Shown: positions 1 through 55,400 of the stretch, one piece after another
How the letters are laid out: each line of letters opens with the position of its first letter
Numbering within the stretch: position 1 is the stretch's first letter
Assembly: GCA_963920665.1 (NCBI GenBank)
Contig: OY987265.1
Location: forward strand, 45,079,001 to 45,143,000
Source of the DNA: Straminergon stramineum
Taxonomy: Eukaryota; Streptophyta; Bryopsida; Hypnales; Calliergonaceae
DNA length: 64,000 nt
Reading direction: 5' to 3'
The notes under the pieces: generated by a model
Seen by the model: only the letters and a program-made list of their open reading frames with translations
What the model was told of the DNA's origin: nothing
Databases searched by the model: none
Position numbers and translations under genes: made by a program

Positions 1-476
1 AATGATTGAATGAATATGAAATTCAAAATGTAGGTTCCTCTAGCACTGATGAATGAACACAAATTAATCTGAATTTTTCAAAATTATTTTAGGGTGTGAA
101 ATTGAATTTCATTTACATGTCACATTTGCGGTTTTGATAGTTTTTAGTACTATTGAGTACCTTTTTTGAAGGATTACATCGTCAAAACTGGACAGTGAGT
201 TGCTGTAGTGGAATTACAACTTTTGTGGAGAGGGATTTGCAAAATCATGTTTCAATTGCCTTTGGCATTGCTTCGATGTGTACGACGTTTACACAACATT
301 TTCTAAGTAATACAAAATGTTTTCCAATTTCTTCTTGCTCCATTCAGTAGTTCTTTTAGTTGTCAATAATGGCCACTTTTAAATTTATTTTTCCAAAATC
401 ATTAACTATTTTTCAAAAATGGGAATGTTCCAACTTCATTTTTTGGGGTAAATCGAAGACACTGTCAGAAAATAGT
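1..476 (+). repeat. Left subterminal region of the large transposon
   Basis: This stretch is AT-rich and has no gene. It is diverged but colinear with about 51975-52400 inside the MITE in the dynein intron: a TTCA.AATT..AAAATTA block, then ATGTCACA, then TTTTTAGTACTATT, then a GGAT..ATCGTC block, then CTCCAT followed by GTTGT and CACTTTT. Two short open frames here (153-350 and 360-578) show no recognisable product and I regard them as chance. Confidence 0.5.
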
Positions 477-776
477 AGTCCAGGGTATTGTGTAGGACTC
501 CTTAGTATTGGGCGGGGCCCACTACGCCTGCAAATTTGCCAACGTGGACTGCTTTCACGGCGACGTCTTTATGGCTGAGTTTCTAGTGGCTACGCGTTTC
601 GGCGGTTGAACGCTGCCGCCAGTTTCAGTTGCACACTACTGTCTACCTTCGGTCCCCAAGCTGTCATGGGAAGGCGGAATGATTTCCATGGGTTCTCTGC
701 AATTTGTCGTAGGTGGGTTTAGGGTATGTTGTTGTTTTGGATTACGTGTGCAGATACTTGGATTTGAAATGCTGGC
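477..776 (+). promoter_or_regulatory. GC-rich 5' flank of the transposase gene
   Basis: Base composition switches here from AT-rich to GC-rich, with a run GGGCGGGGCCC near 509-520. No clear TATA box was seen. The segment sits directly upstream of the first ATG of the transposase gene (777), so it probably holds its promoter and 5' UTR. The assignment rests on position only. Confidence 0.3.
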
Positions 777-3700
777 ATGGATGGTATCCGTCGTGACGGT
801 CGTCCAGGTCCGCGGACTCGACAGCGACTGCTGGCTGTTGCGTTGGAACATCAACGAAGTCGTTGGAGGGATCGTCAACGGCGCAGCCGAGCGAACCGTG
901 CGACCGCGCAACGAGGTGTAGAAGCAGGGGAGCCGGTAGATGGAATCGACACTATTACACTTCGATGGGGCTCCAGGAGGCACCGGACAAGTGTCTGGAG
1001 AAGTGCTCAACAAATCGCGAGTTCTCTGACGAGATTACTGGCACGAATTCGGAATCCTGCTTTTAGAGCGGAAGTTCTCAACAAGGTTTTCAGTAGTCGC
1101 CATGTTCGTCCTTTACTTCCTGATTACTACCCTACTCCTGAAGAAGCACGGGCCCAAAGGGAAATACTGCAGAACATTCGTGCCGATTTGCAGGCCCTGA
1201 AGATCCCACATTCTTTTGGAATGTTGGCTCGGAAGCGCGCCATCCTGGAAGTAGTGGTCGGCGAATTAGATTCAGACCTCACGAACTTCCACAGCATTCT
1301 TGGTACACGAAAGGAGAATTTGGTGGCAGCTGTGGAGCGCCTCCGATCTGCTACAGAGTCTACGTCTACCCGATACCAAGTCCCAACACAGAAGAAACGA
1401 GAAGGGGGGATTGACGACGCTGTCAAGGCTCTTGTGTTGCAGTGGTGGATAGAAGAAACTCGAGTTAGTCCAGGACGTCGGGACGTTCGTAGGAAACGCC
1501 TCGGACGGAGTTTGTATGATACACATGCAGCTCATCTTCTCTTGGAAAGCCAGGTTCCTCTTTCCCCATTCACTTTCATGTTCCTCAAAGTTCAATGCAG
1601 TGTGTTTCGTAGTTACAGTTCAACTTGCATATGTGGAGGATTATGCCTTCCTCCGCAATGTAGACATTTTGAGCGCTTATGATTATGTGCAGAACAGTTT
1701 AACATACACCACATCGGCAATTGACCCAAGGTTATTACCGAGTAACTTAGTCCTCGGACGTCCTGCATCATCCCTTTCTACACCTCGTTTCATGATGAAA
1801 CTGTACTCAGTTGTCTTCCTATATCCAATATGTACCTAGTCTTCCACGCATGAGGTACTTTCAGGACACGTCCTCACTATTATATAGTTCCCCATCTTAC
1901 CCATAGGACCTCCTTTGATTTTCGTAGTCTGCCCAGCCTTTCCAGATTACAACGTCATACTCCTCTGTAGTGCATAATGTATTACACACACGGCTGACAG
2001 TACTTTTGAAGTAAGCGAGAGTCCTTTCAGCCAGTGGCAACACGCAAATGACTGCACGCCTCTTAGTAAGTAGTACTTGCTTTCCGTGAGGTAGTCATTC
2101 ATACACGTCACTAATGACATGACCTGATGAACATTACTAGGCATTGCTTGCGGAGTACCCTGTACATGCCAAAGCGGCACCTCCTAATGCTTTGCTACAG
2201 CCGATGTCCTCTTTGGACTGCGTATGCAATCCTAAGACGGCAGTGATGCATGAGTGGATGACACTGTACTACACGGACCGCCTGCACTCCTTTCTTTGCC
2301 TTTCTGGTTCCTGAGGAGTACGTTGCAGTATTAAGTTCACTTATGCCTTATTGCGTAATGTACTTCTAGTTACTTCTTACGCACTTGGACGGCATGAGCT
2401 TGTCGTGCTTTGCAATGATTTAGTCCTTCCGAATCACTATTCCGTGATCACTGAGTCCTCTGGAGTGCACGGGTCATCCACTGCCTATCCTCTTCGAGTC
2501 CCCATAACTCTTGAACGTCATGTGCTGTCTTTGAGAGGTACTACTGCAATCCTCCTCTGTACAACATGAGTGACCTGAATATTACTTTCTTTTCATGCGA
2601 GTACTATATAGTACTATCAGTGACCTTGCAGTGCTTGTTTGAGTACTTAATGTAGTGACACTAGTACTTTAGAAGTACTGTGACAGGACTACTTCTTGGG
2701 CTCACAGTTTCATGTGAGTTGAAGTTGACATCCCTAACTTCTATTCTGTGAATGTCTTCTAGATGCAGTTATACACACGATTCATTGAGAAGCACCCAGA
2801 GTGTGCCATCCATCACTGGGCTTTCATCAACCTTCGTCCTTTTTTCGTTATCAAGTGCAAAGAGCGAAATGTCTGCTGTTGTCGATACCACATTCAAGTG
2901 CTTTATCTTCTGGAGGCCTTGAACGCCTTCCGCGATCCTTCTAGAGGGGCGCATGTCATCTTCCTCTGTGATTGCCAATGCACTGTTTGCGACACCAACC
3001 AGGAAGGAGTCTGTAATGTTGGACGAAGTCGATTTCCTTCTATCACCACACTATGGGAAGCGCTCATGTGTCCGAAGACGGAGGATGAGGAATTCCATCA
3101 CCCTAAATGCTTGCTAGGAGCTTGCAGTAGATGTGGTCTGCAATTCTTTGACGTTTGTCCACGAGAAAGGGTGATCGACGCTACTCGCACCATTCTATGG
3201 AAGTAGTTTCAATACGAGGTTGTCGGCACATCAGCGGATGGTCAGCCGAAGAAGCGCATCAAAGAGGTGCTGAGGACGACTTCATTTTCTGAGTTCCTCG
3301 ACTTCTTCTGTCCTTCACTTCAGCAGTTCATTCGCCATAATTTCATAGCCAAGTGGCAAACACAGCAAGCCAAGCTCCTCCAAGCGTGCTTGCAAGCAGG
3401 CGCTGTCTTGACACACATCGATTTCTCTGAGAATTACACATTCGAACCTCAGAATGAGATTCAGTCCATGTACTACCATTCTGACCAAATCACTATTCTT
3501 GTGCAAGTGACGTACTTACCGGATGTTGGGGAAGATGTGGGGCAAGGGGGGGTGCAGATGATGAGAGAGACGCACTACTACATCTCTGATGACAAAACGC
3601 ATGATACGGACTTTGCGCAACATTGCCTCATGCTCCACTGGAGGTGGATGCAATCAAAAGGACTGACCCCATCCATTCACTACGTCTTTAGTGATGGATG

Positions 3701-5332
3701 TGTAGGTCAGTTCAAGAGTGCCAAGGCCATGTACTTCGTAGCCAGGTGATGCTTCCCTCTATAATGCTTCATGTTCAAAAAAAAGTCGGAAGGAACTCGT
3801 TCGCCATGTCCTGTTGCTCTGCGAAGTCCTCAGTAGTACTCACAGTACAGTTTGAGTCCTATACGTATAGCTAATTTCCAAGGCGTCGTCTGGCACGTAT
3901 AATGGTTCATGCCACGTTCATGTACGAACCCATTCCCAGAAATCACTGACGGGGTCAAGTACCCTATACTTCACTCACATTGTGTTTCTTCTAAGTGGAT
4001 GTAGATATCCAGCCCTTACGGGCGGCTGCAAGATGCTTTGGAACTATTATGGGACGGGCCATGGAAAAGGTGAATGGGACGGTGCTGGGGCAGTCATCAA
4101 AAGGTCTCTTCGCAATGAGCAGCTCGTCAATCCTCACAGACGCCTCCAAAATGCACAAGATTGTGTTCAGTTCCTTAATGCTACTATGGCAGGACGAGTT
4201 CCTAATCAACACGGGGGCATGAGGTTCCTCATTCCATGCTTTCCTTTTCTCCGTTGTTTTACATGTCTATTCAGAAGCTATTGTTGTCTCACATTATATA
4301 TGCAGTACCAGCTTCCTCTGTTTCCCAAAAACGCCTCTTAAATTAAGTTATGTATACCTCATAGTACTCTCTAGCACAATAGTTTTTTTACAGTGAGCTC
4401 TATGTACTGCATAGTACTGAATGGCGCAGTAGTCTTCGTAAAGTAAGCTATGGGTGCCGCATAGTACTCATCGCCTTAGCGAAGGATCTGTACGTGTATT
4501 GTGAGATGCTCCATCTTCCTCGAAGGCTGTCGTTGACGATTATGCAATTCTACGCATTCTTGTAGTTTCACAGTAAAGACTAGTGCATTCGTTACTGACT
4601 GACTCCTTCTCACGTGCATGCAAGTCATACCGATATTTCCATCATGTACGGCTACATGAGGTTGACCGTGGGAATTCCCAATCTTGTGATCTAATCCCTG
4701 GATCCTCAAAACTGCACTCCATCTTTGCTCCAGATAAGCACAATCCCACGAAACTGTTACTACGGCCGTTGTCATGCTTCTGCGGCCCTTGCGTGGAGGA
4801 AGATTTCAGTCATTGCGAGAAGAAATCCTACATAAAGGCTTGGAAGGTCACTAAGATACAACCACGAAATGTGGAATTCGCAGTTGTGCTCATGGTCCCA
4901 GAGGATGACGATGACAGTTGGGAGTACGAATACAACGATGAAAGCATGGGTGACTTAGTGCAGGCAGGAGACAATTTCGCTATCCCAGCCACTGAAAATA
5001 ACGACGAAGGGGTGTCATTCTACATTTTACAATGTCAGAGGCCAAAACACATTGTCGAAGAAGATTTTGACTGCATATGGGGGGGGCATTTTCAAGCGGG
5101 AGACTCCGTCATTTCCGCAACGTACTATCAGAAATGGGGACGGAGAAATGCTAACAACTATGTGTTCTTACGTAATTCCAGGGAGGCCTTTGTGGACGTC
5201 GACTCAGTCTAGGCCTATAAGTTCCAAATGATTCCTAGAAACCACCGAGTGAAGGGGGGAGATGCAGTGTATACTCTCTCAAATGAGACTGTGGACGTCA
5301 TCAACACAGCCCTAGAAGAAATGGATGCATAA
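777..5332 (+). pseudogene. DDE-type transposase-like gene, four exons, two in-frame TAG codons
   Basis: Predicted exons are 777-1553, 2769-3745, 4005-4197 and 4625-5332 with GT-AG introns and consistent phases, about 884 codons. The N-terminal part is Arg-rich and basic, followed by a helical segment (WWIEETRVSPGRRDVRR). Exon 2 has a Cys-rich part (VCCCRYHIQVLYLLEAL, later CDCQCTVCD). The core has IDFSENYTF, SDGCVGQFKS and, in exon 3, GTGHGKGEWDGAG. These resemble a family of transposon proteins I know from animal and algal genomes. The Asp of IDFSEN, the Asp of SDGC and the Asp or Glu of GEWDG are plausible DDE/D catalytic residues of an RNase-H fold (inference). A late Cys-rich motif (LSCFCGPC) follows. 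TAG at 3204-3206 and TAG at 5210-5212 interrupt an otherwise open frame that runs to TAA at 5330-5332, so this copy is probably dead. I cannot assign a named superfamily. The junction between exons 3 and 4 is the least certain. Confidence 0.7.
4341..4470. repeat. Three diverged 50-base tandem repeats
   Basis: ATAGTACT recurs at 4361, 4411 and 4461, exactly 50 bases apart, each preceded by a related AAGT(T/A)..CTATG segment and followed by a GC.CA.TAGT segment. The array lies in the last intron of the transposase gene. Confidence 0.6.
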
Positions 5333-5789
5333 ATGACGGAACTTGATGTCTCATGGAACAGAACTTCTTAGACTCTTAACATAGCGCTAGTAGGGTATAA
5401 GAATATGACAGTCTGCCGGCACACTTGCAAGTGCAATGCATTGCCGCTTGCAGTTCTCTTCTTCAAAACAGTTTTGAGAAGTCAATATAAGAAGGCCCCG
5501 GTTTTATTAAATAGTGTGAAGGCATTACCTGAGCCGTCCACACTTGTATCTACAGTGATCATTGTTTTCATTGCTACAGATGTAATTACATGCATTGTTT
5601 TTATTGTTGCTCTCAGAAGCTTCCTTTGCTGGACCACAATGATTCGCCTGTACTGAAGTTAGTCATTCACAGAAAATCACTACTATGTTGTATTATGAGT
5701 ACTACGAATCATCCTATTCGGTAAAATGAAATGCTCACTATGTAATGTTTGAGGGTACAATAGTCCCCTGGGGTGTACATAGGACAGTC
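5333..5789. other. Spacer between two convergent genes
   Basis: The transposase frame ends at 5332 on + and the SET-domain gene ends at 5790 on -, so this 457-base spacer should hold both 3' ends. An 83-codon open frame on + (5405-5656) shows nothing recognisable and is not called. One AGTACT lies at 5698. Confidence 0.4.
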
Positions 5790-7007
5790 CTAATCCGCAA
5801 GCGTTCTACACAGGTCACTGCCGCAAGTACATTTGAATGGGACATGTCTTCCATCTTTTCTCTGAAATCGGCATCCATAATCCCATGTTAATTCCTCCCC
5901 CTCCGCTACTTCCCGGACGGTAAAATAGGCCACCTGCATTAACAAGGACGGTACAACTTATTACATGATACAGACCTGTATGGTGGCCAGCGGTTACATA
6001 CTATGTAACCAAACACTATCTACAATCACATGTAGTACTTACATGGTATAGTGTGGGGATGTTGTGCTCCACAAAGACTGGAATATCCATCAGGTTTGCA
6101 TCGCCACATCTGCAATGGCAAAATCAAACAAGAAAGTTGAATTCCTTCAACAAAAGCCCCTGAAGCTATTCAACGGTTGTATGGGGAAGTCCAAAGTAAA
6201 ATTAATACAGAATCAACGATGCACCTGTGGTTCAGCCACCTAGCGACGTTTGTGATTGTGGATGCATCAATGGTCAGCAGTGAGTCATCTCTCTGGTTCA
6301 TCTCAAAATGCCAATGCGCATCTAGAGCAACACAATACTTCTGACATATTTTACGAGCCAGAAGCTCTGCATTTGTCACTATTTCTCCGCCGTATTCAAA
6401 CACAAAAGAACCGCGGCTGAGCCGTTGCAGTGTACGAATGCCCCAACCCTTCGTAGCAGAGACGGAGAAAACCTGCTACCATCCCACGGCATTGATGACT
6501 GAAAACATAATTACATTGTGCGTGCACAGGTTATCATGCACGAATCTGGAAAGCAAGTTACCTGGAACATCCGATATGTTCTGCCGCTGAAAATGAGAGA
6601 TGCTTGCATGTCATTCGTCGAACAGAATTGCAAGTGCGGATTTCTTGCCCGTCCTCCACTAACACAGCTACTTCAAATCTTACCGAATTCAAGTTCCCTT
6701 CGAGGCCCTCACCATTGCTAATCATTTATCAGCCACGTTTTCATTGTTTCCATCTTGAGCATGTACAAGCAAGCAAAGGAACCTTGCGTACCTCCAGTCT
6801 GTGTGTAACACCTCTTTGCACCACTTTATTCTTGCAGGGTAGGCCGCAACCACACACACGGAAGCATTCTCTAATGTACTGTCGTTGCACATGCCCTGCG
6901 TAGCGACGTCCTCGCAATTCAGGGCAGGCATTTTGCCCATGACAACGAACTAGACCTCCATTCGCCAAAGTGCGGGTCATCTGGAACTGGCACTTGCTAC
7001 TAGTCAA
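5790..7007 (-). CDS. SUVR-like histone-lysine methyltransferase (pre-SET, SET, post-SET), 5' end incomplete
   Basis: Four exons on - join in phase: 7007(approx.)-6792, 6472-6225, 6109-6043 and 5933-5790 (TAG stop). Exon A is the end of a pre-SET zinc cluster (IRECFRVCGCGLPCKNKVVQ). Exon B starts the SET domain with KGWGIRTLQRLSRG, then EYGGEIVTNAELLAR and IDASTITNVARWLNHR. Exon C completes NHRC and adds DANLMDIPV. Exon D has EELTWDYG and a post-SET Cys cluster CTCGSDLCR. The NHRC variant and the DAN.MDIP segment are typical of plant SUVR proteins, which methylate histone H3 lysine 9 in the nucleus. The SAM-binding (GWG, NHRC) and catalytic (WDYG) motifs are all present, so this part looks functional. 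I see no WIYLD domain, and the first pre-SET cysteines must lie in upstream exons not firmly placed. It lies within the large transposon, converging on the transposase gene. Its introns contain AGTACT, including at the donor near 6034-6042. Confidence 0.82.
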
Positions 7008-7050
7008 GAAAATAGGACAGCGGGTTCAGTTTCCGGATGGATCTTCATTT

Positions 7051-7200
7051 CACTGTACTCTATGCCAGAGCTCATGAGTACTATAGGACTACGCGGATTT
7101 CACATACTATACTGCATGGCACAACTAATGAGTACTATAGGACTACGAGGATGTCACTGTACTACATGGCACAACTAATGAGTACTATACAACTCCGTAG
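7051..7200. repeat. Three tandem repeats of about 50-55 bases
   Basis: Copies begin near 7051, 7101 and 7154. Each contains a CATGGCACAACTAATG-like segment followed by AGTACTATAGGACTAC (AGTACT at 7077, 7131 and 7181). The array probably sits in an intron of the SET-domain gene, next to its pre-SET exon. Confidence 0.75.
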
Positions 7201-7250
7201 TCCTAGGAAGTAATGACATGAGGGATAGGCAAGGAGAAGCCCGCACTCAC

Positions 7251-7400
7251 CTGCTTGATGTACCACAGGTGAAGGGTACTGTCGTCCAAGTATGTTGACC
7301 CTGCATTCTCCTCCCACGAGGAAATAACTCCGCCAGGAAGACCGGAGTTCCTTCCAGAAGTGCATAAGGGAAACATATGTACATAATATGCTGCAGCTAG
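7251..7400 (-). CDS. Candidate upstream pre-SET exon of the SUVR-like gene
   Basis: On -, an open frame ends at a strong splice donor (CAAGCAG then GTGAGTGC) with its last exon base at 7251. The frame is open upstream to about 7667. Its final residues (ENAGSTYLDDSTLHLWYIKQ) could correspond to the E.SG..Y segment before the second cysteine group in plant SUVR proteins, and the junction could join in phase to TTC or ATG codons near 6990. The diagnostic cysteines of the pre-SET nine-Cys cluster are not evident, so the call is tentative and the 5' limit is arbitrary. Confidence 0.3.
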
Positions 7401-7800
7401 AGTTTCAACACTCACTAATTGATGCAATATGGGACTGCAAACATATGTATAGTCCGTGTCCAAGGGCGACATGGAAAGCAGTGTACAGGATCCCGCAAAC
7501 AGTATGGGGACCTTTTCCATGCCATGTGACAAATCACACAGAGTCGTTGACCGTGCCTCCTGTTGAGACCAACACATTATACAACAAACACAAAGCCGTC
7601 TGAAACTATATATTGCATAAGCATGAAGTACATGGATACCAAAAAAAGGGCGAAGTGCTCCACCCACTACTATCCACAGGCCCAGAGGCCTTCCCTGGAC
7701 TACCCCCTTTTACTTCTGAGATGCGGCCCAAGAACTACATGGAAAGCGAACACTCATTGCTGCTTGAAATTCCTGTGCTCCAAGCCAGCGTCTCTCAAAA

Positions 7801-8101
7801 GTGGCGGAGGCAGTCCCCCCTCTGAAGTCTGAACGCACAATCCACCACAGTGCCTTGTGCTTGCAGTCGCGCAATAGTGTCACTTTTTACCCACCTCTCC
7901 GGAACTCGGAGTTTCTGCAGGACCTGTCGAAGGAGGACTGGACACCGAAATTGGGGAACCCCCAGCTGGCCGAGGTCACAACTGCCTGTGGAATTCATCA
8001 GGCGGCTTACCAAACTTCAACGCACGACGACTTCCTCCTTTACCTAGCACAGCATAGTCCACAGGAATGGAAGGTGTATTACTTCAGATGTAGCGCGCAT
8101 A
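7801..8101 (+). other. Unassigned open frame on +, possible exon
   Basis: A + frame of about 130 codons runs through here and meets a possible donor (TGGAAG then GTGTATTAC) near 8071. The composition is protein-like (for example NSEFLQDLSKEDWTPKLGNP), but I recognise no domain. The opposite strand is also partly open. It may be an exon of a fourth cargo gene or an artefact of GC-rich sequence. The surrounding 7401-8318 otherwise shows only AGTACT-bearing spacer. Confidence 0.25.
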
Positions 8102-8318
8102 ATGTGCATTGTGACCGCAAAGGCAGTATATGGTCAACATTAGAATACATACAGCCATACATAAAGTACTCATGTGAGTGCTCCCTAGTACTAAAATAGT
8201 ACATGCAAGTACATCGTGTATACTGCTTGCAAGTATTGAGAGTACTAGGAGTCCTTTTTACTGACTGAAATGTCGGCCAATACACTTACTTTCGTAAATG
8301 ACTCCACATGTATTAGGA

Positions 8319-11300
8319 CTAGTCATTCTTGTTGCGTGGCGTACCTGACGAGGTGTTTCTAATGACGCCTTTCACTGGGCTGCAAGCCTGGTCGGCCTCT
8401 ACGGATGGTGACGGTTTCTCCTTTGGTTCTCTAGACGCCAATGGTAAAACATTGGCCACAACAGCGGCGGTTGAACCCATGAGTGCAACATCTTCTTTCA
8501 CCGTCAAATCCCAGGGGTCATCTTCATCGGCACTAGCACTTTCTTCGCGCGTCACCTCCTGCATTCACCCACGGTGATCAAATTACATGTATTACTCTGG
8601 AAGCCGCTGAAGTCCTACATCGACAACAGAAAAGGTTTCTTTGTCTTCAAATACAGAAAAGGATCACAAACTACATCCGGAATTCATAAGACTCGACTAT
8701 GTATTGAATGATCAGGTAGAGAAGAGCAGATTTCATTATAAGGCCACATACCATAGGAACGTGGAACTCCGTAGTGCACATAGGTGCACTGGGATGACTG
8801 TCGTCTGTGTCGCTGAATCCCAGGGACTGCAAATCCAGTTGCTGTAACTCCAGGTCCAGAGCATTGGGCGTCTTGTCTTTCTGGCTGAACTGCAGCTTCA
8901 AAATGTCCACCTCCGTTGCTGGTGAATCCGGAAGAGCTATGGGTTCCACTTGTACTACCGCTGGGGAAGAAGTTCGAAAGAGCTTTGTTGCAGCCGATGA
9001 TGCTAAGGACTCACGGGTAGGAAGAACTTTGTCTTTCTTTTTGTCCGCCAACATAGTCTCCACTGGTGGACATTGTGGTGAGGTAATTGGTGCTCCTGAG
9101 GCGGGAGTAACTACAACAACATCTTCCACATTCTCCGTGGTAATGTGAGTCCCTAATGGAAACTCCTGTGCATCTGATGAAGACAGTGGAAGAGGCGTGT
9201 TGCAACGACTATGTTTGATTCCTGCAGAGACAACGGAGCATTTAGATTCAAAAGGATTAGACGTGGCATCGCCGTCTGGAGTGCCCGCTACACGACTGTC
9301 ATCCCGTAGTCGTTTGCCTGAAAGAACGATATTTCCACGCAAGGAGTACTTGTCCCCACCGAAACACTTCGTGAATGTGCTGTCAGAAGCGGACACGCTA
9401 GGTGCCCCAGTTCCAATGGAGGAAAGGCCTGCACATGCAATCCACAGTGTTCGTGGTCAGGGTGAGTCGCGGTTTGCTTCTCTGTTCTCATGAATGCAGT
9501 GAGCACGAAAGAAGAGAGAGACATTCAAGAAGAGCACCAACAATGTACCAATTTCCAAACCAGGACTAGTACTTTTACATACAGGAAACAGGGAAGGGAG
9601 TACTGCAGTCCTACTGCTGTACATCCTATTACATTTGTACTATTGGACTAGTCCTGAAGGCAGTAAAGAGAATGCGTTAATGATTGAAAAATAATGTTAT
9701 GTGGTGCTGCTATGCTGAACACTATGAATTGGAAGTACAAGATAGCCTTCTCTGAGTGCAGGGAGAAGCAGTCACGTACCCATGACATGTCCCGGTAGGT
9801 GTTCCTGGGTAGAGGGATCCCGACCGAGAACAGTAGAGACGCCTTGGACTACCGCAGGCTCCTCTGTTTTTCTAGCTTTGTCAAGTGAGGCAGGGAAACC
9901 CCAGCTTTTCAACCACATTGGATGAACCACGCCGCAATTACTATGAGCGCATAGGGATGTCGCCTCGAACCACTGTGCCGCGCACCATGGGTGATACACA
10001 TGCCTGCAAGCACAGACAAGCACATCTGCATAAGGGAAGCCCTCCGAGTATGCAGCACAGCGCTGAAGCTCCAGACTGAAGGTAGTGGATACGTCCGTAA
10101 AAATCGCTTCAACGTGATTGGGCTGCGGATGGGGGTGGAGTATTTCTCCTTCTCCACCCCGCACTAGGTCTTCGAGGTGCTCTTCCAGTGCTGCAAGGCG
10201 AGATTGAGTACCCAATATTTTCCCTATCACATCATTAAGAGCTCTGCGCATGTCACTTTCCACGCTTGTCAATTCCTTCATCTTCTTCGAGTGGCTGTCT
10301 AGTAAGCGCTTCAGAAATTCGGAGCCGCCTTCCTCTGCCATCTCCGTCATTGTGTCTTGCACTTGGTGAATTCCAAGTAGACTAGCTCGCTGTTGCTTTG
10401 TTACAGAATCCGCCTTGGTTTGCAATGCCTCAACATCGCATTCGAGTTTCCTCAAGTTCCCAGTGACAAATTTCACCAGGTCCTCAACCTCGGCCTTCCT
10501 GCGACCCATGGAACATAAAGTAGGTGGTTAGTACTCAGACAAGCGGACCTCCTCATAGTACAATAAAGCACTCATCAAAGTCCTAAAAGTACTTCATATC
10601 ACTTCTCCTGTGCACACAAGTACAGTGATGTATGTTCCGAGGAACATGTAGTACTGTAGTACTCTAAGTATAATGCAAGACCTCACTAAAGTCCTGAAGG
10701 AAATACGAGCAGCTGCCTTCGTCCCAACGAAGTCCACAGTGCACGGGTTCGGATGGTTTAAGTACTGAATATGTGCATCATGTTTGTTATTAGTCCTGTG
10801 AGCACCGCGGTGGTCACATCATCGTGTCGTTGAGGACGTTGACAGTACGTTATGGAAGTACAAGGAATGATTAGTACAGAAGATTGTTTCTGTAGTATTA
10901 TTTCTTACCGGTGAGTCACTTCTTCCTCACAGATTACAACCGACAATCCGTGGGAGTACATTGCGTAGGACAAGAAGGACACAAGTGTAGTATGTCGAAC
11001 TCAGCATGTGGAAGAGAAGTGCATCACTAACGAAGGATAGGAGGTAGTCAGTGGTAGAAGTCCTACTGGACAGTACTGTAAGCATGGATGAGGCATTAAG
11101 GAAGAAGCTGGCATGACTTTGCAGAGTTGCCTTATCTAGAAGGACAACCCCAAGTGCAGAAGTACAGGAGCGTTACTCCATGAAATTCCACGTGCTAGTG
11201 CACTGAAGTAGTATGAGGACTCCGAGGGATACAGTCCTGTAGACGAGAGGACAAGGGGCATTGACGATGAACTAATGCACTGAGTAGTACTACCCTAGTA

Positions 11301-12406
11301 GTAGTCATCCATTGCCCGATGCAGTGACACAAAGTTCATCGGAATGCACTGCAGTACTGCATGGCTTACGACCATGCCAGTTCGTAAGGGTGAAGTAGCA
11401 AACTTTGAGAAGAGAGGATGAACGTACCTTTCAGCCCGGCAAGTGTTGGTCATAGACGGAAGACGCTGATGCACCTGCTCAGGTTTCACATTCCGGGGAA
11501 GAATGTCCTGTCCATCTCCGAATAGCTGTAAGACTGGCTTATTGTCGTCGTTGACATCCAAGTACTTCGAAATTGCCTCTTCCTGGACGACCTCAGCGAG
11601 TGGTCTATTTTGCGCTTCGGCAATCCTTGCCAACCACGTCTTCACACGTTGGGCATATTGTTTCCGCTGTCCCAAATTGGTTTCAGCAGCGAAGCCTGCC
11701 CAATTGATGGCATGGCCTTGTGTCTGCAGAGTCCACCCCATGGCCAACTCCTTCCCTACATGAGTGCTAGAGTGCGTCTTTTGGTAAATCCGGCAATACA
11801 ATGACTCCACCTCTTTCCGCAAAGCGGGAGTCAACCTTTCTGTGATAAGGAACCCATTCCGCCCCTTCTCTTCGCCAAACAAGGCCTGCACATCAGCTAG
11901 GGGCACGTCTTTATCCATGCAAAGCCTATGCGGATTCTGTCCATCTTGGGAGAGCTTGCATGAAGTGTGGAAAATGTCTTCCGGCATGGCTGTGGGAGGG
12001 CACTTGGATGGGTGGCTGAGGAGATTGAGCTGGTGGCGGCATTCGTCCTCCGTGTACTCTCTGTCAGTGGGGGCAAGTTTCTTGCGCTTGGCCGGTTTCC
12101 TCTTCGGCTGCTGCTCCAAGGCTTCGCTATCTGAAGCGTCGTCACTACTTCCTGAGGATGGGGATGGCAAAGCTACCCGCTTATGCTTCTTCTTTGGACT
12201 AGGTCCTGCCCTTCCACCCTTTTTGTTACTGTTGCTTCCACCTTCTCCTACAGTAAAAGCCCCACCGAGCCCCCCTTTGTTCAAGTCAGACTGAACTGGA
12301 CGTGATGCTGTTCTTCTCTTCCCCTTCTTCTCGTATGTAATGGCATTGCCGTCGTCAGCGCCACTGCTGTCCTCGGCACGTGCATGCTGAGTTGGTTGAG
12401 GTCGGC
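8319..12406 (-). CDS. Spliced four-exon transposon gene with coiled coil and RING-like Cys/His cluster
   Basis: Exons on - are 12406-11428, 10498-9780, 9428-8752 and 8558-8319 (TAG stop). Donors (GTACGT, GTACGT, GTATGT) and acceptors (CGCAG, TGCAG, TGCAG) fit, and the phases agree across all three junctions, giving about 870 codons. Exon 1 is basic and low-complexity at first (KKKHKR, then PSPSSGSSDDASDSE), then ordered. Exon 2 begins with a heptad-rich coiled coil (KLECDVEALQTKADS), then a zinc-binding-like cluster: VCACRHVYHPWCAAQWF and LCAHSNCGVVHPMW. I remember similar C..H.YHPWC proteins as uncharacterised products in bryophyte-grade genomes. Exons 3 and 4 are Ser/Thr/Asp-rich and probably disordered. 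The reading frame has no Met near the start of exon 1 and a stop just upstream, so a 5' exon is missing. Function unknown; a DNA- or ubiquitin-related accessory role would be speculation. Confidence 0.68.
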
Positions 12407-13700
12407 CTCAGTTATCCACCGTCGTACTCTTCATTTTCGCCATTGCGCACACTGCTTTCAGCTGTGTACATGCAGAAAACATGCAATTGGCAGCTTAATG
12501 TCACATTCAGTAGTTCCTATAGTACTTATGTAAGACTAGATGTATGCCATAGTACTAATGCAGTACTAAATGGAGTCTGTAGGACGGAGCGGAAGTTGTA
12601 GAGGACTGCACAGTCCGCACAGAGGGACGACGACTATACGTGCAAGACCCGCAAGGAAAGAAGCTCAAGTGCTGGGAGAAAAAATGCTAGGTCAATTCAA
12701 TAACAGAAATGAATGTGGCTGCCTACGAGGAAGGATAATTGAACAAGAAGGGGAAGGCTGGACGCCGGACGGGAAACAACTTGCATCACGAGGCGCGCTA
12801 CACCACCCTAGCACAAACTGCCCTAAGTGACAGTAGGTGCATCGATTTCAAGCGTGAATTGATAATGCAGGTGAAACTTGAACCCTATGTCGTAGTTAAT
12901 CTAGAGAAGCTGGAATTGGACAGGAAAGCAATCAACAAGTACATCCACAAGCGACATTTCATATCATTGAACCCTGAACCCTAACATGCTACGCTTTAAC
13001 CCCATGAGAGAACGAAGCTATGCTGATGGGGCAAGAACTTCTGCCAACAGATGACGACCCAAAACCCGGATTCCTAATGGAATTGATAATGGAATTCAAA
13101 ACAGAAGTATGAAAGTGTCACTGACCTACGCAGCCGTCCAAAACTGTGATTTGTAGTGCCCTCGCAGCAACAGCGACTGTAGTAGACGCACGCCTTGACA
13201 ACCTCCACCAATCAGCGAACTCCACATTGATCCACTCCGTGAACTTCATGAATTGTATGCACTGTCTCTCAGTCGTCTGAACCGCCCTTCACACCACAAC
13301 TACGGATACACAATGTCGGGCAAGAACAGCAACAGAAGCCTCGCGGTCAACACTCTTGCGATGAAACGGTCAGATTGGGAGGCGGTTGGGAGCGCGATGA
13401 TTATCGAGCACGGGCTACGTCGACAACATAGAATTCTGCATTTCGCAGGAAACCCTAGGTAATCGTGTTTGGCGAATTAAAGTAGAACACCAAATTGAAG
13501 GAGAAGACGGAATTGCAGATGACGGGGACTGTCCCAAAACATCATCCTTCCCTGACATCTCCTATTGTCATCCACTACCATGCGTCCACGTGTCTTCCCA
13601 GTATTTCATCTCGATTCCAATCGACGGTCCACGTTTCATCTCCCGTACCCTTCATAGTACTCGCAGGACTCGTAGTACTAATAGGACTGACGCAGCGAAA
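12407..13700. other. Right-hand non-coding part of the large transposon
   Basis: No gene could be supported. Short + frames (12570-12830, 12739-12984, 13253-13462, 13495-13848) lack recognisable motifs. AGTACT occurs at 12531, 12551, 12562, 13656 and 13674, together with AGGACT/AGTCCT. A missing 5' exon of the minus-strand gene (8319-12406) may lie here. Confidence 0.4.
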
Positions 13701-13704
13701 ACCG

Positions 13705-13744
13705 AAAACGCAACAAATAGGACAAGTGTTTCTTGCAATCACCC
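13705..13744. repeat. Right terminal inverted repeat of the large transposon
   Basis: The sequence AACGCAACAAATAGGAC, GTGTTTCTTGC, AATCACCC matches the right end of the MITE at 52580-52619 with about one mismatch in 40 bases, and is the reverse complement of that MITE's left end at 51898. Immediately outside is TAAT, a plausible 4-base target duplication. Confidence 0.75.
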
Positions 13745-14460
13745 TAATAGTCAGAAGTCTTTCCGAACGGTCAACTGCCCAAACTTGTGATGGGAAATTT
13801 TTAGAAATTCCCCACGTGGCAGTAAATTCCCACCAGAAATTATTTTAGCTTCTTTTATGTCAATAAGCTATCTCGACAAGTTTCAAGACATTCCAATAGT
13901 TAGAAGTACTCGAACCTACAAGATTTCCCAACAATTAACGGAATTTAAAGTCCATAGCGAAGTTGACCTGCGGTGCAAGAGCATACAAAAGCAAAATGGG
14001 TCTCAAGATAGGTCTTTTTTCACACACACACACACACACACACACACCGTACCTACTTAGGAGCCTAGGCTAATTACTTTTGCTAGAAAAATCACCCCCC
14101 CAAAGTTGGGATTTTTTCCGATTTTAGCATTAAGTTGGCACTAGGTTTCGTTGTGAGTTTGAAGATAGAAAAGGGGGAGTTCCTCTACTCTAAAAATAGC
14201 CTTTTAAAGCCAATGGCACTGTTACAAACCTCTCACAATAGACTCCAACTAATGACACAAAATATACTCATTAACAAAATGTTTTACAAAGAACTCAAAC
14301 CACCCGACCATAGAGAGAGATCAATCTCAAAAAGATAGTCTCCTCACCCCCGAGCTCTTCTTATATACTAGAGACTATCAATAAAGACTATTGGTCTTTA
14401 AAATAGACTAAGACCTCTTTTCTATCTTTAAACTTCTTTTCTATCTTTAGCTTTCTATTC
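13745..14460. other. Gene-free DNA to the right of the transposon
   Basis: Composition drops back towards AT-rich. It contains a (CA)n microsatellite at 14021-14047 and polypyrimidine-rich DNA. No coding signal seen. Confidence 0.4.
14021..14047. repeat. (CA)n microsatellite
   Basis: An uninterrupted run of about 13 CA units. Confidence 0.95.
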
Positions 14461-14552
14461 TTGGTTCCATCTAGAACCATCCATTAAAGTAAAGGTCTTA
14501 GTTGTACTTCTCTAGATCATATTTCATGCAATCTATTTCTTATCCACATCTT

Positions 14553-14795
14553 GATCTTCTACTTGGAGTTATCTAACTCCAAGTTCCATCACACTTATCA
14601 TCCTTTGGGAATTGTCTAAATCCAGTGCACTAATCATCCAAATGGAGTTGTCTAACTCCACTACATAAATCCATCATTTGGAGATATCTATCTCCAAGCA
14701 ATCCAGTGTCCTTGTCATCCAATTGGAGTTGTTTGACTCCAGCACACAAATCCACCATTTGGAGAAATCTATCTCTAAGCAATCTCTGCTTGTCT
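14553..14795. repeat. Array of six short hairpin palindromes
   Basis: Six imperfect palindromes with the form TTGGAGTT-N4-AACTCCAA occur at about 14559, 14603, 14641, 14676, 14720 and 14756. Two stem types alternate (GGAGTT..AACTCC and GGAGATAT..ATCTCC). Flanks such as AATCCAGTG and CACAAATCCA also recur, so the array looks like decayed tandem copies of a ~80-base dimer. Confidence 0.7.
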
Positions 14796-15087
14796 ACTAG
14801 TGCACATTTCATCATGGATTAGTTATCCATCAATGCATTGATCCATCAAAGGTCACGACATGAAAATCATGACACAATCATCAAACTTATCTCATCCATC
14901 AATGCATTCATCCATCAAAGAGTTGTGACAAGGGTCATGATAGGTGCAATCCGTTTGCAATTCGGAGTTAATCTCCCAAAGTTAGCTTAGCGGGCCAGTA
15001 TAGGATGAAAACCTTGAGTTTGGATGAAAATCCACGAAGATAAGGGTAACTTAGATGAACGAGAGGAGGTGGGTGCCCGAGAAAGAG

Positions 15088-49400: not shown

Positions 49401-52400
49401 GGATGGAAAATCTTTGAGACCAAATATTTTTTGCCTTATAGGTTAGACCACTATAATACTTTGTAAGTATGCCTATTTGACTTGGGAGTTCTAAATATTT
49501 CAACTGCCATCGAATGAACCAAAAATATACCAAACCTAATAATATAGATTGAGTAGAATATTAAACATTATTTTAGAATTCTAATTAATTAAAAAATATA
49601 AATTACTAAAATGTATAAATACAAAATAATAAAACTACCTTATTTTTGTACAAAAATATGTCATTTTAATAGTTCATGTTTTTTTAAATTTATTCATATT
49701 TAATTTTTTAGTTCTATGATTAAAAGTTTTAATTATAAGATTTTGTTTGTGTATATTTGTATATATTTATTAAAATTATAATTTAATTCTTTGACTTGAA
49801 ATAGGATCGATTAATTAATAATGAAGACCGAGTGTGGTTTAGAAATAATGTAACAAAACAATTGCAAGCTAGGTTTCAATTATCATGGGAATTCATGTTT
49901 GAAAAATCAGAGCGACTTATGTTTTGTGATTTTCTAGTTCCAGGAATGGAACCACGTATTTATGAGCAAGTAATTTTTGAAATATCATAATTTAAGATGT
50001 AATTATTGATTAAAAATTTATTCAGATGAAATTCTACCAAAAAATCGCCTAGTAGTGATGGTGATTTAATAAATTCAATGTAAGAAAAATTTATAATTTC
50101 ATATCATAATTTACATGAAAAGGAAATATTAAAATTATTCAGCTATTCGTATTGATTTATAGGTTGAGGATCTTCCAGCCCTTCAAAAAGTTGCAGAGCT
50201 ATATTTAGAAGAATATAACAATGTAAGTAGTGCTCCTATGAAATTAGTTTTGTTTTTGGATGCTATTGAGCATACATCACGAATATGTCGTATTATTAGG
50301 CTACCACTTGGTAATGCTTTACTACTAGGAGTTGGAGGTAGTGGCAGACAAAGTTTAACAAGGTTAGCTGCATTTATGGAGGAATATGAATGCTTTCAAG
50401 TAAGTGTGAATAGCAACAGTAACATTTTGGGTGATATAATGATGAAATTTAATATATGATGTAAATATCCAATTTAGAGAAAAAATGAACAATGAAAATA
50501 TTATTAGAGTATCAAATTTTTAACTATAAGTTTCTTCAAATGAACACCGATGTAGGTTGAAATTGCTAAAGGTTATGGTAATAATGAATGGAAAGAGGAT
50601 TTGAAGGTAGTCTTGATGAAAGCTGGTATTGATGATAAACCAACAGTATTTTTATTCTCAGACACGCAAATTATATATGAATCATTTTTAGAAGACATCA
50701 ATAACATTTTGAATTCTGGAGAGGTAAATATATAAAATCCATATTCAATTTTTGAATTCATTTGCAAAAAATTTAGCACTTTGATTGCATATAAGTAAAG
50801 TGATTAATTGAAGTGAAAAAGAAAGTTGAATATTCAAAATTATATTTAAATACTTAAAATATAATACATTTATAAAAAATCAATAAAATAAGAAAAAAAT
50901 TACAATTTTTTTATATCTTCAATAATTTATTGTTAACAATTAAGCTAAGAATGATATTCATTGTATAAAAAATAAATCTTTTGTAAATAGACTATGCAAT
51001 TTTGCTTACTTCTCTTAGAGGTATAGTTGAATAATTAATGATAATGTATTCTTTAAATATTTATAAATCCTAATAAATATTTAAAATTTTCAGTACTATA
51101 AAATTTCAATTTTCAAGGTCACGTGTAGAATTTTGAATTACAAGTCTACTTATAGCATATAGGGAATTTGCATGGTATAGTGCACTTGTTTTTACATTGC
51201 ATTGAACTAATTTTTATTGTTTTTCAAGATTTTGAAATTTTCAAAGCATCACCTATTAAATTTTTACTTACTATTTTGTAAAGTAATTTTTATGTAGATA
51301 GAATACCTCATCAATTATTTTTTTCAAATGTAAAATTTTCTATTTTTAAATATTTTTAATGATCCATTGGATAATTGACCAATATGACATACACTACCCT
51401 TGATGCACTCCAAAATTCAAAAAAAGAACAAAGAAAGAAAGGTTGTGAATGAAAATCATAGCTCTAAATATCTATAATAGACAAATATGTAGAATGAAAC
51501 CTTCAAATATTTAGATTTTTCCCACAATGTTTTTTCATATGATTTATTTTACCTCTAAATTAAAAACTTTTTTGATGATTAATTTTTTGTTGTCCAATGT
51601 GGTTTAGGGTTAACTTTCTATATTAAAAACTCATGTACAAAATTCAATTTGGGAGTTCTTAAACCTCAAAATATTGTTAAATTAGAGGTCTCAAAACTAT
51701 ATATCTTTAGAATAATTTATTTTGGAAAATTAAAACTTTCATTTTATCTAAATTTATACATAAGCCTAAACTTGGTCTATTAAGTTTTATAAAAATGAAA
51801 TTCTAAAATTTTGTAAAAATGGTTTGAAATCAAAATTTTATCAAAATTGACAAGAGTACACGTTGAATGTGCAAGAGCACACAAAGAGTTTGTTTAGGGG
51901 TGATTGCAAGAAACACCTGTCCTATTTTGTGTCACATGGTGTGTGCTGATTAGTTTTTTGCCTACAACTTTTGTGTTTTGGCTCCAAATGACTCAAGATT
52001 TTTAAAGAAGGTACTCATGAATATGATATACCTTCCCTAATTTTTTCATAATTTCCAAAAATAATTTACTATCCAAAAATAGACCCCAATTCAATGTCAC
52101 AATTGCCAATTTGGAGGTTTTTAGTACTATTCAGAACCAAAAAAACCATATTTTGAGCTGAAATTTGGATGAGATGGTCTTCTAGTAGACTTGTAGCTTT
52201 CTGGGAGAGAAATTATTAAAATAGTTAATTTTTTGTGGTGTGGAAGTCTACAAAGTGAGCTTCTTTCTGCTTGCATTTTGTAACATATAAAATATTGTTT
52301 TGGTGGGTTTTTTGGTGAATGACCATCTCCATAGGGTTGTTGCAAATGGACACTTTTTATTTTGTGTCTTTATTTATTTTTACTATTTTTCCTTAATTAA

Positions 52401-55400
52401 AACATCAAGGTATGTATTTTCTTGAGATTGAGCACTTTTCTAGTTCTCCTATGTAGAGAATTTTTCTATGAAATTCCTTCCATGGGTACCTTCATCTTAA
52501 AGGTATATACATTAATCATATTTTTTTAATTTAAAAAAAATTAAATTTCTCATTTTAAAGTACTTCCCAAAAAATCAGCAAAACGCAACAAATAGGACAG
52601 GTGTTTCTTGCAATCACCCTTAGGAACTAAAAGGCCATAGCTTTCAAACCCCCTTCAATCTTAATTCAATAAAATGTGCTCAAATAGAACATTATTTACA
52701 ATTATACATTGCTAGATTATAAATTTACATAAAATTTTACAATTTGAATTCATCATATATTAAAGAATTAGAGTTTATAATAGCAATAATATTAGGTACC
52801 TAATTTGTGGAAAAATGAAGATCAAGATGTAATAGCAAATGCTATGAGACCTGTTCTTTTAGCTAAAGGCATGCAAGTTACGAAAATAGCAATGGCAACA
52901 GAATTTTTGAATCGAGTTCAAGCTAACTTGCATGTTTGTATAGCCATGAGCCCAATTGGAGATGCATTTCGTACACGATTACGTATGTTTCCATCCCTTG
53001 TAAATTGTTGTACCATTGATTGGTTCAGTGAATGGCCACAAGAAGCTTTACTCTCTGTTGCTATAAATTTTCTTACAGCAACAGGAATGCTTGCAGACCA
53101 TGAGGTAAACTTGTGTTTTGGCATATGAATTTCAAAGATTCTAAAAAATTCATTTTTTCCATTAAAATGTATTTGATTGAAGTAACTTCAAATAATTATA
53201 TAAGTGTTCAATGTAAATTATTGACAAATTATAATAATGTAAATCCAGTATAATTTTTTAAATCAAGTGTTTCATTAGTGTAATATTATTTTTCAACATT
53301 ATAATTTTAATATTTCTATTAAATAATCTAGTATTAAATATCTATAATAAAATAGGTAGCAAATATTATACAAGTATGTGTATTTATCCACCAATCCGTA
53401 GAAAAAAAATCAAAGGAATTCTATGAAGAACTTAGAAGATTCAATTATGTAACACCAACAAGTTACTTGGAACTTCTCATGTGTTTTATTAAGTTGTTGA
53501 GTGAAAAGCGAAAAGATCTTGAGGGATTAAAGGATAGACTATCAGTTGGTTTAGACAAACTACTTAGCACAGCAGATGAAGTTGCAGTCATGCAAGAGGA
53601 GCTAGTTTTCTTACAACCTATTTTGGTGAAAACAACAAAAGAAGCTGATGACATGATGGCTGCTATTTCCATTGACCAAGAAGATGCAGCTATTACAAAA
53701 GAGCAAGTATGTGTTTTCATAATGCCATTATAAGCAAGAACATTGAATACAAAGTAGGAGGTTCTAAAGGCACAAAGGCTCTAAAATCATCCACCTCTGT
53801 AAATGTACACTATTTGAACATGCCACTTTTTCATTGTACCAATGCTATACCAATAATGTATAGTTGAGGAGGTGAGCAATTTTAGGGCCCTAAACCATTT
53901 TAACTTAAAAAATTTAGAACGAATTCTACAAAACTCCCCAAAATATGAAATGACTTAGATTAGATGTCAAATTCATTTGTATTTCAAGGAAAATTTACAA
54001 AAAAATATTTCAAGAAATTTTACCTCTCCAAATTTTGGTTTCAGCTCTTAGATGAGCACTTTGTGGACCTCCTACCTTATACATTGTTTGAAATAAAGAA
54101 TGTTTTCATAGAAATTCGATATAACATATAAGATGTAGATATTTTCATATGAAATTTATTTCATATTTATTTCATGTATTTTAATATCATAAAAAATTTC
54201 TAATTTAATGTGGCAATAAAAAAATTCTGTCTACTACCTACATTCAATATATGGGGTATTAGGACTCTATATACCATCTTCCAATATACTTGATTTTTTT
54301 CAATAATTTGGTATGAAAAATTAGATTTTTTTTCATTAAATATTATTTATTTCACATTCATAAAAATTCATTAATTAATTTTCAAAAAATATATTAAGTG
54401 TGATGATGAGTAATTGTTTGTACCATTAAATTTACAAATATCTTTGTAAAAGAATTTGATTAAATTTTATTAGAAATATTAAAGAATAAATTTTATACAA
54501 ATATGTAATTTTGTTTTTTTCAATGTTAATTATGATTCATGCACCTTTAATTGTAGAATTTATCCAAAGAGTGAAATAAATTTATAAACTTCGAGTCAAT
54601 GTTATCAAGACTTCAATTTTTTATATATAGTAAAATTCAGAGACAAAAATATTGAAAAATATGATTTTTTTATTTTAATTATTTAGAATAGAAAACATAA
54701 ATGTTGCAAATAACACCTCTACAATAATATTCTTTAAGTGTTGTAAGAAATACTAATATGACTTGGAACAAGTTGGCTACTAATTGAAAATATTATTTTA
54801 CCATTTTCAATGGAATGAAAAATATAAGCAACTCATTAAAATTTGCAATTTTTTTTTCGAATTAATCAAATTTCATATGCATAAATCTTTTTGTGCAACT
54901 TAAACTTTGATATTGTTATTTTTGAAAATAGGTGGGAAAACAAGAAGCTGCAGCTAAGAAAATGGCTGCTGGTGCTAAAGCAATAGCTGATAGTGCTCAA
55001 GCAGAGCTTGATGTTGCACTTCCTGCCCTTGATGCAGCTTTATCATCACTTAAGAATCTTACAAGAAATGATATTGTTGAAGTAAAATCACTCCGAAATC
55101 CTCCTCAAGGAGTGAAGATGGTGATGGAGGCTACATGTATTATGTTCAACTTGGCACCAAAGATGATCAACGACCCTAACAAGGTTTTTAAGTTCAATAT
55201 ATATGAAACTAAAATCATATGCATAATGTTTTTTCAATGATAACTATTAAATTTATATTTTTTCTATTTCGCATATTTCTAACTGAAATAAAAATTTCAA
55301 AACTATTTGTATTCAAAATGTAGTTTCCATCATTGCAAAATATAACAATAGTAATCAAAATCTGTTTATTAATATTAATTTTGAAGCTTTATTGCATTAA

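What the first reader, a model, noticed from the sequence alone, without database searches (positions are those of the whole stretch)
5790..7007. A SUVR-like H3K9 methyltransferase gene apparently carried inside a DNA transposon
The minus strand encodes, in four phase-consistent exons, the end of a pre-SET cluster, a full SET domain (KGWGIR, EYGGEIVTN, NHRC, ELTWDYG) and a post-SET Cys cluster. It lies between a transposase gene and the transposon's right terminus, and its introns share the AGTACT motif of the element's other genes. SUVR proteins deposit heterochromatin marks used to silence transposons. An element that brings its own copy could steer or titrate host silencing, or direct integration to heterochromatin. 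The role is inference; the domain content is seen directly.
Basis: partly seen in the sequence, partly recalled or inferred. Interest (0 to 1): 0.92.

Follow-up and report, generated by a model that had tools for sequence, protein, structure and literature searches.

The report
Moss transposon carrying histone methyltransferase gene
A jumping gene in what looks like a moss genome carries its own copy of a plant gene of the kind that writes silencing marks on chromatin, and natural selection kept that gene in working order while the element was still moving.

Summary
Window 5790-6980 (-) encodes, in four in-phase exons, the pre-SET end, a SET domain and a post-SET of SUVR type; a fifth exon lies upstream. 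The gene sits inside a 13,824-bp DNA transposon with ~30-bp inverted repeats, TAAT target duplication and a DDE-type transposase; its left end lies 80 nt outside the window, its right end at 13744. All 17 other close copies fetched carry SET and transposase DNA in the same order, as do two of three diverged elements. Element-type SETs form one clade (98/93) apart from host-type SUVRs. Variants private to single copies are neutral (omega 1.00); differences fixed between two subfamilies are constrained (SET 0.23, p=0.0025; transposase core 0.09). So SET was a selected part of the element. Copies are scarred by C>T at CG and CHG sites, the footprint of methylation-based silencing. A palindrome, AGTACT, fills the non-coding DNA (35 against 2.9 expected), recalling VANDAL anti-silencing elements. 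SET-bearing transposons are reported in oomycetes, so this is a new variant of a known kind. What the SET protein does for the element is untested, and elements lacking SET could have been missed.

The parts
1..13744 (.). DNA transposon, 13,824 bp in all; its first 80 nt lie left of the window (C3:45078921-45079000)
   Evidence: Flank divergence of nine copies gives the left end; own left end read in L051; right end at 13744 by inverted repeat and by 10 of 17 other copies whose matches stop at window 13743-13756
13715..13744 (.). Right terminal inverted repeat
   Evidence: First 29 nt match the left end with one mismatch, 35-37 nt with a 2-nt gap; exact 19-mer hit at 13726-13744, three hits in the window against 0.01 expected
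13745..13748 (.). Target-site duplication TAAT; the other copy abuts the left end outside the window
   Evidence: L051 and window flanks
771..1553 (+). Transposase, N-terminal exon (start and end inferred)
   Evidence: Open frame; fixed subfamily differences 9 nonsynonymous/13 synonymous, p=0.002
2763..3745 (+). Transposase catalytic exon (DFSENY, SDG); one in-frame TAG at 3204-3206
   Evidence: 125 relatives at E<=1e-3; intron border shared with relatives P0007 and P0008, which end at YFVAR
4005..4230 (+). Transposase exon with HGKGEWDG (3' border inferred)
   Evidence: In-phase splice; conserved in relatives
4713..5332 (+). Transposase C-terminal exon (CFCGPC; borders approximate); one in-frame TAG at 5210-5212
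   Evidence: Matches relatives and L049/L050 at 58%; fixed differences 1N/10S
7251..7559 (-). SET gene, upstream exon (5' border inferred); lacks most pre-SET zinc cysteines
   Evidence: Matches P0134; open in about 12 of 18 copies
6792..6980 (-). SET gene exon: second half of pre-SET
6225..6472 (-). SET gene exon: SET N-terminal half to NHR
6043..6109 (-). SET gene exon CGDANLMDIPVFVEH..LYH
5790..5933 (-). SET gene last exon: ELTWDYG, post-SET CxCx4C, stop
8671..9456 (-). Open frame, function unknown; 8692-9456 shows no clear constraint (18N/10S, p=0.32)
9772..10527 (-). Open frame, coiled-coil-like plus weak RING-like match (zf-RING_2 E=0.005, under its cut-off)
11295..12407 (-). Open frame, basic protein with no Pfam match above cut-off
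146..13679 (.). 37 AGTACT palindromes, 35 of them outside the coding stretches as I assign them
51898..52619 (.). 722-bp non-autonomous relative with the same terminal repeats, target duplication TTAG, in the same window

Best explanation
Shown: a large DNA transposon of a (probably) moss genome contains, as a standing gene beside its transposase, a SET methyltransferase gene descended from the plant SUVR lineage, and that gene was conserved by selection while the elements were mobile. After insertion each copy decayed neutrally under heavy CG/CHG C>T mutation. The shared exon borders suggest that it was captured as genomic DNA with its introns. Inferred: the SET protein was made by active copies and acted in trans on chromatin of the element's own family. 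It was probably addressed to it through an element-coded DNA-binding protein that reads the AGTACT palindromes filling the non-coding DNA, and it shifted the silencing state in the element's favour. Two directions are possible: changing the H3K9 methylation state away from the form that feeds CHG methylation, or limiting its own activity. My odds: self-directed chromatin modification about 0.45, with anti-silencing somewhat likelier than self-restraint; competitor of the host SUVR/SUVH enzymes 0.25; targeting of insertion 0.1; other 0.2. The confidence below is for the shown part.
For: 18 places with the main SET exon at 80-97% identity, the window's own included; 17 of 17 others fetched have transposase and SET DNA in one order. 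Ends, inverted repeats and target duplications for this element and for a MITE in the same window. Order kept in diverged elements L049 and L050. P0006 (SET) and P0055 (transposase) both list a longest contig of 45,101 bp from the same source. One clade against host-type SUVRs, 98/93. Fixed differences: SET 6N/12S, omega 0.23, p=0.0025; transposase core 3N/14S, 0.09, p=1.5e-5; recent omega 1.00 and 1.05; two wrong-frame controls show no deficit. C>T is 2049 of 2995 variants seen in at most 2 of 18 copies; CG 0.051, CHG 0.046, CHH 0.015 against A>G 0.003. A transposase relative folds as a DDE catalytic core. AGTACT 35 against 2.9 in non-coding; 1 of 108 motif positions differs between subfamilies against 268 of 4375 others.
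Against: The first half of the pre-SET zinc cluster is missing in this family and its exon shows no constraint (4N/1S), so methyltransferase activity is not assured. The fixed-difference test rests on 18 SET sites and on subfamily majorities. Copies were found through SET, so SET-less sister elements would be missed; of three diverged SET places fetched, L048 had no transposase match. In a first tree without host exons of this genome the element clade had 83/95 only. All 18 copies have at least one stop in the transposase core exons (L043 is masked there); nothing shows present activity or expression. Against an anagram control the motif conservation is only p=0.026, and L050 has no AGTACT excess. 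No call shows a protein that binds AGTACT.
Confidence: 0.88

Rival explanations
1. The SET protein is a competitor: it occupies the histone or the partners of the host SUVR/SUVH enzymes without doing their reaction, and so blunts silencing.
For: The pre-SET zinc half is lost in this family while the four SET exons are conserved.
Against: The NHRC and DYG motifs and the post-SET cysteines are kept in the window copy and in most of the 18 copies; 6N/12S constraint across the SET exons.
Confidence: 0.25
2. Passenger capture: the transposon picked up a SUVR gene by chance and carries it without use, as Pack-type elements do.
For: Recent variants are neutral; 15 of 18 copies have stops in SET exons 1-4.
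Against: Selection between subfamilies, one clade, the same gene order in diverged elements and apparently in a metagenome contig.
Confidence: 0.07
3. The SET protein steers insertion to H3K9-methylated chromatin, for example by sitting with the transposase on nucleosomes.
For: Constant pairing with the transposase; copies carry a strong methylation scar, which could mean that they land in silenced regions.
Against: The 722-bp relative sits among exons that look like a dynein gene; the scar can arise after insertion; copy positions against heterochromatin were not tested.
Confidence: 0.1
4. A host SUVR gene amplified beside or between unrelated transposons, not part of the element.
For: None found.
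Against: SET lies between matched inverted repeats with a target duplication in the window copy, and between shared ends at unlinked places in others; host-type SUVRs of this genome are separate genes.
Confidence: 0.01

Closest known systems
SET-bearing DNA transposons of oomycetes (HarbingerS and MuDR families of Phytophthora; Kojima and Jurka 2014, seen only as a sentence and references in PMC12730594)
   Same: DNA transposon that has incorporated a SET histone methyltransferase gene
   Different: Other host kingdom; here a SUVR-type SET with introns, 4-bp target duplications and a transposase with no Pfam match above cut-off; the oomycete sequences could not be compared
VANDAL/VANC anti-silencing MuDR elements of Arabidopsis (PMC5735166, passages)
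   Same: Family-specific short motifs (YAGTATTAY; AGTTGTCC/AC) concentrated in introns and intergenic DNA of the element, plus an accessory gene acting on the element's own silencing
   Different: VANC is not a methyltransferase (recalled); no binding protein for AGTACT is known here; other transposase type
TET/JBP-bearing fungal DNA transposons (PMC12730594, passages)
   Same: Transposon carries an enzyme that edits an epigenetic mark
   Different: Acts on a DNA mark, where SET would write a histone mark
Plant SUVR1/2/4-type H3K9 methyltransferases (names recalled)
   Same: LDAxW insert, NHRC, ELTWDYG, post-SET; same borders of the main SET exon
   Different: Own clade, six-column deletion before KYxxALDA, pre-SET half lost in this family, multicopy and mobile
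Sola2 DNA transposons (PMC3627910, passages)
   Same: 4-bp AT-rich target duplications; known to capture accessory genes (Fanzor1)
   Different: Transposase similarity to Sola2 not tested; no reference sequence was at hand

Membership tests
TIR (DDE) DNA transposon | Terminal inverted repeats with a target-site duplication | tested here: met
   About 30-nt repeats, TAAT both sides; MITE with TTAG both sides
TIR (DDE) DNA transposon | Transposase with RNase-H-like DDE core | tested here: met
TIR (DDE) DNA transposon | Dispersed copies with the same ends | tested here: met
   Left end in 9 of the 9 copies compared, two of them (L033, L045) with changes in it; right end in 10 of 17 other copies
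Sola2 superfamily | 4-bp AT-rich target duplications | tested here: met
   TAAT and TTAG, as described for Sola2 in PMC3627910
Sola2 superfamily | Sola2-type transposase sequence | not tested
   No Sola2 reference sequence held; no Pfam match above cut-off
Plant SUVR1/2/4 group | SET domain with NHxC and DYG, post-SET CxCx4C | tested here: met
Plant SUVR1/2/4 group | Complete pre-SET zinc cluster | tested here: not met
   Second half mostly present (one Cys is Tyr in the window copy), first-half cysteines absent in this family's upstream exon; present in the unnamed relative P0134
Plant SUVR1/2/4 group | LDAxW insert and borders VF..NHR of the main SET exon | tested here: met
   SUVR-type exons of this genome L053 and L055
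Plant SUVR1/2/4 group | Falls inside the host SUVR clade | tested here: not met
   Five host-type rows form one side of a 99/97 branch, element rows another clade. Hence 'SUVR-derived', not 'a SUVR'
SET-bearing oomycete transposons | Harbinger or MuDR transposase with SET | not tested
   Oomycete sequences not held; our transposase has no Pfam match above cut-off
VANC-type anti-silencing system | Short motif concentrated in the element's non-coding DNA | tested here: met
   AGTACT 35 non-coding (2.9 expected) vs 2 coding (0.9 expected)
VANC-type anti-silencing system | VANC protein that binds the motif and removes methylation | not testable with these tools
   Needs binding and methylation assays

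The most novel reading that the evidence does not exclude
The element is a self-addressed chromatin editor: it carries a histone methyltransferase (the writer) and spells its own address as a palindrome through all its non-coding DNA, read by an element-coded protein. Writer and address move together, and each element family has its own palindrome (AGTACT in this family and in L049; perhaps GACGTC in L050). This would be a VANC-like system built on histone methylation, in a plant.
Probability: 0.3. Interest if true: 0.93.

Novelty: new variant of a known kind. Interest (0 to 1): 0.82.

Why it matters
H3K9 methylation is a mark plants use to silence transposons. A transposon lineage that captured a gene of that enzyme class, kept it under selection and still bears the scars of CHG methylation puts attacker and defence enzyme in one unit. 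It makes a direct test possible: does a transposon use a silencing enzyme to protect itself, to restrain itself or to choose where it lands? The AGTACT arrays, if read by an element protein, would extend the VANC principle of family-specific chromatin addressing from Arabidopsis VANDALs to a different transposon of an early-branching land plant.

Tried and rejected
Host-gene amplification rejected on element borders. Inverted-repeat search inside the window alone failed because the left end lies outside it. Viral collection: five scans found no confirmed relative. One search found no solved relative of the transposase by sequence. The first structure job was sent without an alignment and gave pLDDT 32; the second used A3. 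Foldseek alone gave no match at E<=0.001. One search used a wrong frame for the transposase C-terminus and, an exon D start one base off; the C-terminus is right and exon D, and one search's stop counts for the core exons are superseded. C2:40.23M, first taken for a host SUVR, reads as SUVH type (judged by eye). L048 showed SET but no transposase match in its 10 kb; its top 6-mers are not AGTACT, though it has 7 against 1.5 expected. Rows left out of trees: P0164 never added; P0161 under 50 columns; P0142, P0156, P0157, P0159, P0160 dropped by me; P0155 and P0163 also dropped. Motif conservation used 8 of 10 subfamily-A and 5 of 8 subfamily-B copies.

Paper searches for prior art: (listings). 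They gave the oomycete precedent but no plant one in this open-access library. Passages were read of PMC12730594, PMC3627910 and PMC5735166. The Sola paper (10.1093/molbev/msp013) was not held; what I think of Sola beyond PMC3627910 is recalled.

Full report
What is there. On the minus strand, exons 6980-6792, 6472-6225, 6109-6043 and 5933-5790 join in phase with GT/AG borders and no stop, and encode the end of a pre-SET, a whole SET domain and a post-SET. Pfam gives SET at 5.1e-15; among solved structures EHMT2/G9a is best at about 1e-32, aligned from the pre-SET end to the post-SET. A fifth exon upstream (7251 to about 7559) matches the start of P0134, an unnamed relative with more of the pre-SET. 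In this family that exon is open in about 12 of 18 copies but lacks most of the zinc-binding cysteines. The 5' end was not found.

Where it sits. The main SET exon occurs at 18 places at 80-97% identity, the window's own included. Ten-kilobase stretches around the 17 others were fetched. All 17 align to the window in one order through transposase and SET at 85-97%; five (L035, L038, L043, L044, L047) align only from inside the transposase gene on, because of insertions, truncation or the stretch limit. Comparing nine copies, unrelated flanks give way to shared sequence at GGGTGATTGCAAGAAACAC, with changes in L033 and L045. The window's own left end, 80 nt outside the window, and its right end at 13744 carry this repeat inverted, flanked by TAAT on both sides; the element is 13,824 bp, 47% GC. 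In 10 of the 17 other copies, matches to window 12001-15000 stop at 13743-13756; the other seven matched only about its first 733 bases in that search, so their right ends are undetermined. The same ends bound a 722-bp MITE at 51898-52619 with TTAG duplications.

The association is old. Diverged SET exons (51-66% identity) occur elsewhere in the genome. Of three fetched, two (L049, L050) have the transposase at 51-78% identity in the same order and orientation; the third (L048) has no transposase match within its stretch. In the protein collection, P0006 (SET) and P0055 (transposase) come from the same source with the same longest contig, 45,101 bp, which I take to be one contig; it could not be fetched. 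In a 43-row tree of the main SET exon, 29 element-type sequences form one clade (98/93; 83/95 for 25 rows in an earlier tree without host exons of this genome). Five host-type SUVRs (two exons of this genome, L053 and L055, one celery protein and two unnamed) lie across a 99/97 branch. A third group, 'B', seen in unnamed proteins and in a degenerate copy on C11, is sister to the element clade. Rows left out are listed under Tried and rejected. The SUVR exons of this genome have the same borders (starting at VF, ending at NHR) as the element exon, so capture was probably of genomic DNA, introns included (inference).

Selection. I aligned the window and 17 copies, masked misaligned stretches, and took the mutation spectrum from variants seen in at most 2 of 18 copies. 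For SET, such recent variants are 111 nonsynonymous or stop to 52 synonymous: exactly the neutral expectation (omega 1.00). Differences fixed between the two subfamilies are 6 to 12 (omega 0.23, p=0.0025; recent against fixed p=0.0045). The catalytic transposase exons give 1.05 recent and 0.09 fixed; its N-terminal and C-terminal exons 0.27 and 0.04 for fixed differences. Reading SET or the transposase C-terminus one base out of frame shows no deficit. The upstream SET exon (4N/1S) and the open frame at 8692-9456 (18N/10S) show no constraint. So SET and transposase were conserved together while elements moved, and each copy decayed freely after landing. The SET count is small (18 sites).

State of the copies. 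In exons 1-4, 3 of 18 copies have no stop (window, L031, L045); L031 has lost a splice acceptor, and L045 has a frame-shifted upstream exon and an altered NHRC motif. The window copy alone has all five exons open with intact borders as I assign them, though one pre-SET cysteine is a tyrosine. All 18 have at least one stop in the transposase core exons (L043 is masked there and should not be counted on).

Silencing scar. Of 2995 variants seen in at most two copies 2049 are C>T; per-site rates are 0.051 in CG, 0.046 in CHG and 0.015 in CHH, against 0.003 for A>G. From general knowledge, CHG methylation in plants is tied to H3K9me2, so the copies have probably been targets of the pathway whose enzyme class they carry. 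This is a mutation footprint, not a methylation measurement.

The palindrome. AGTACT occurs 37 times in the element within the window: 35 in 7685 non-coding nt (mean 2.9 and at most 8 in 200 shuffles) and 2 in 6059 coding nt (0.9 expected); the other 50 kb of the window has 8. Between subfamily majorities 1 of 108 motif positions differs against 268 of 4375 other non-coding positions; against anagrams of the motif, 82 of 1588, p=0.026. It is also the top 6-mer in L049 (15 against 2.5), whose non-coding DNA gave no nucleotide match to the window. L048 has 7 against 1.5, but other top 6-mers. L050 has no excess (2 against 2.4) and another palindrome, GACGTC, on top, 7 of 8 outside its recognised coding parts, though its element borders are unknown. 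VANDAL elements carry VANC-binding motifs concentrated in introns and intergenic DNA, YAGTATTAY for VANC21 and AGTTGTCC/AC for VANC6 (PMC5735166, passages). The likeness is of arrangement; no binding protein is known here.

How it may work. The supported part is that SET was a working, selected gene of the element. The likeliest mechanism is that its product acts on the element's own chromatin, addressed by a protein reading AGTACT; direction unknown. Competition with host enzymes, favoured by the lost pre-SET half, and guidance of insertion are the rivals.

Known or new. [quoted passage not shown] The kind is therefore known. A SUVR-derived, selected SET in a plant transposon with its own motif array was not found in the searches made, which cover open-access papers only.

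Limits. The transposase-led genome search did not complete, so SET-less relatives are not excluded.

Noticed in passing
51898-52619: 722-bp MITE with the element's terminal repeats and TTAG duplication; apart from the ends it shows little similarity to the big element.
   Followed up: partly
G000 C11 (17.4 Mb), e.g. L054 and about ten other places: A third SET group ('B'), sister to the element clade, seems concentrated on C11; the one copy read (L054) is decayed. C11 may be a sex chromosome (guess), or this may be a second transposon-borne or amplified SET lineage. Only L054 was placed in the tree.
   Followed up: partly
14220-14940: A roughly 720-bp repeat with more than 15 further copies at 88-98% identity elsewhere in the genome, possibly a solo LTR.
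   Followed up: no
18107-18704 and L049:8178-8772: A window open reading frame region is 65% identical to DNA close to the diverged SET element L049; possibly another mobile gene that neighbours or belongs to such elements.
   Followed up: no
L052 (C2:40230001-40231400): A long open frame that reads as an intronless SUVH-type gene of the host (judged by eye).
   Followed up: no
9772-10527: The element also codes a coiled-coil-like protein with a weak RING-like end; L050 has a weak match to it near the end of its stretch. It is a candidate partner or DNA-binding protein.
   Followed up: partly
about 28000-63000: Plus-strand exons that look like an axonemal dynein heavy chain (recognised by eye from the translations).
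   Followed up: no
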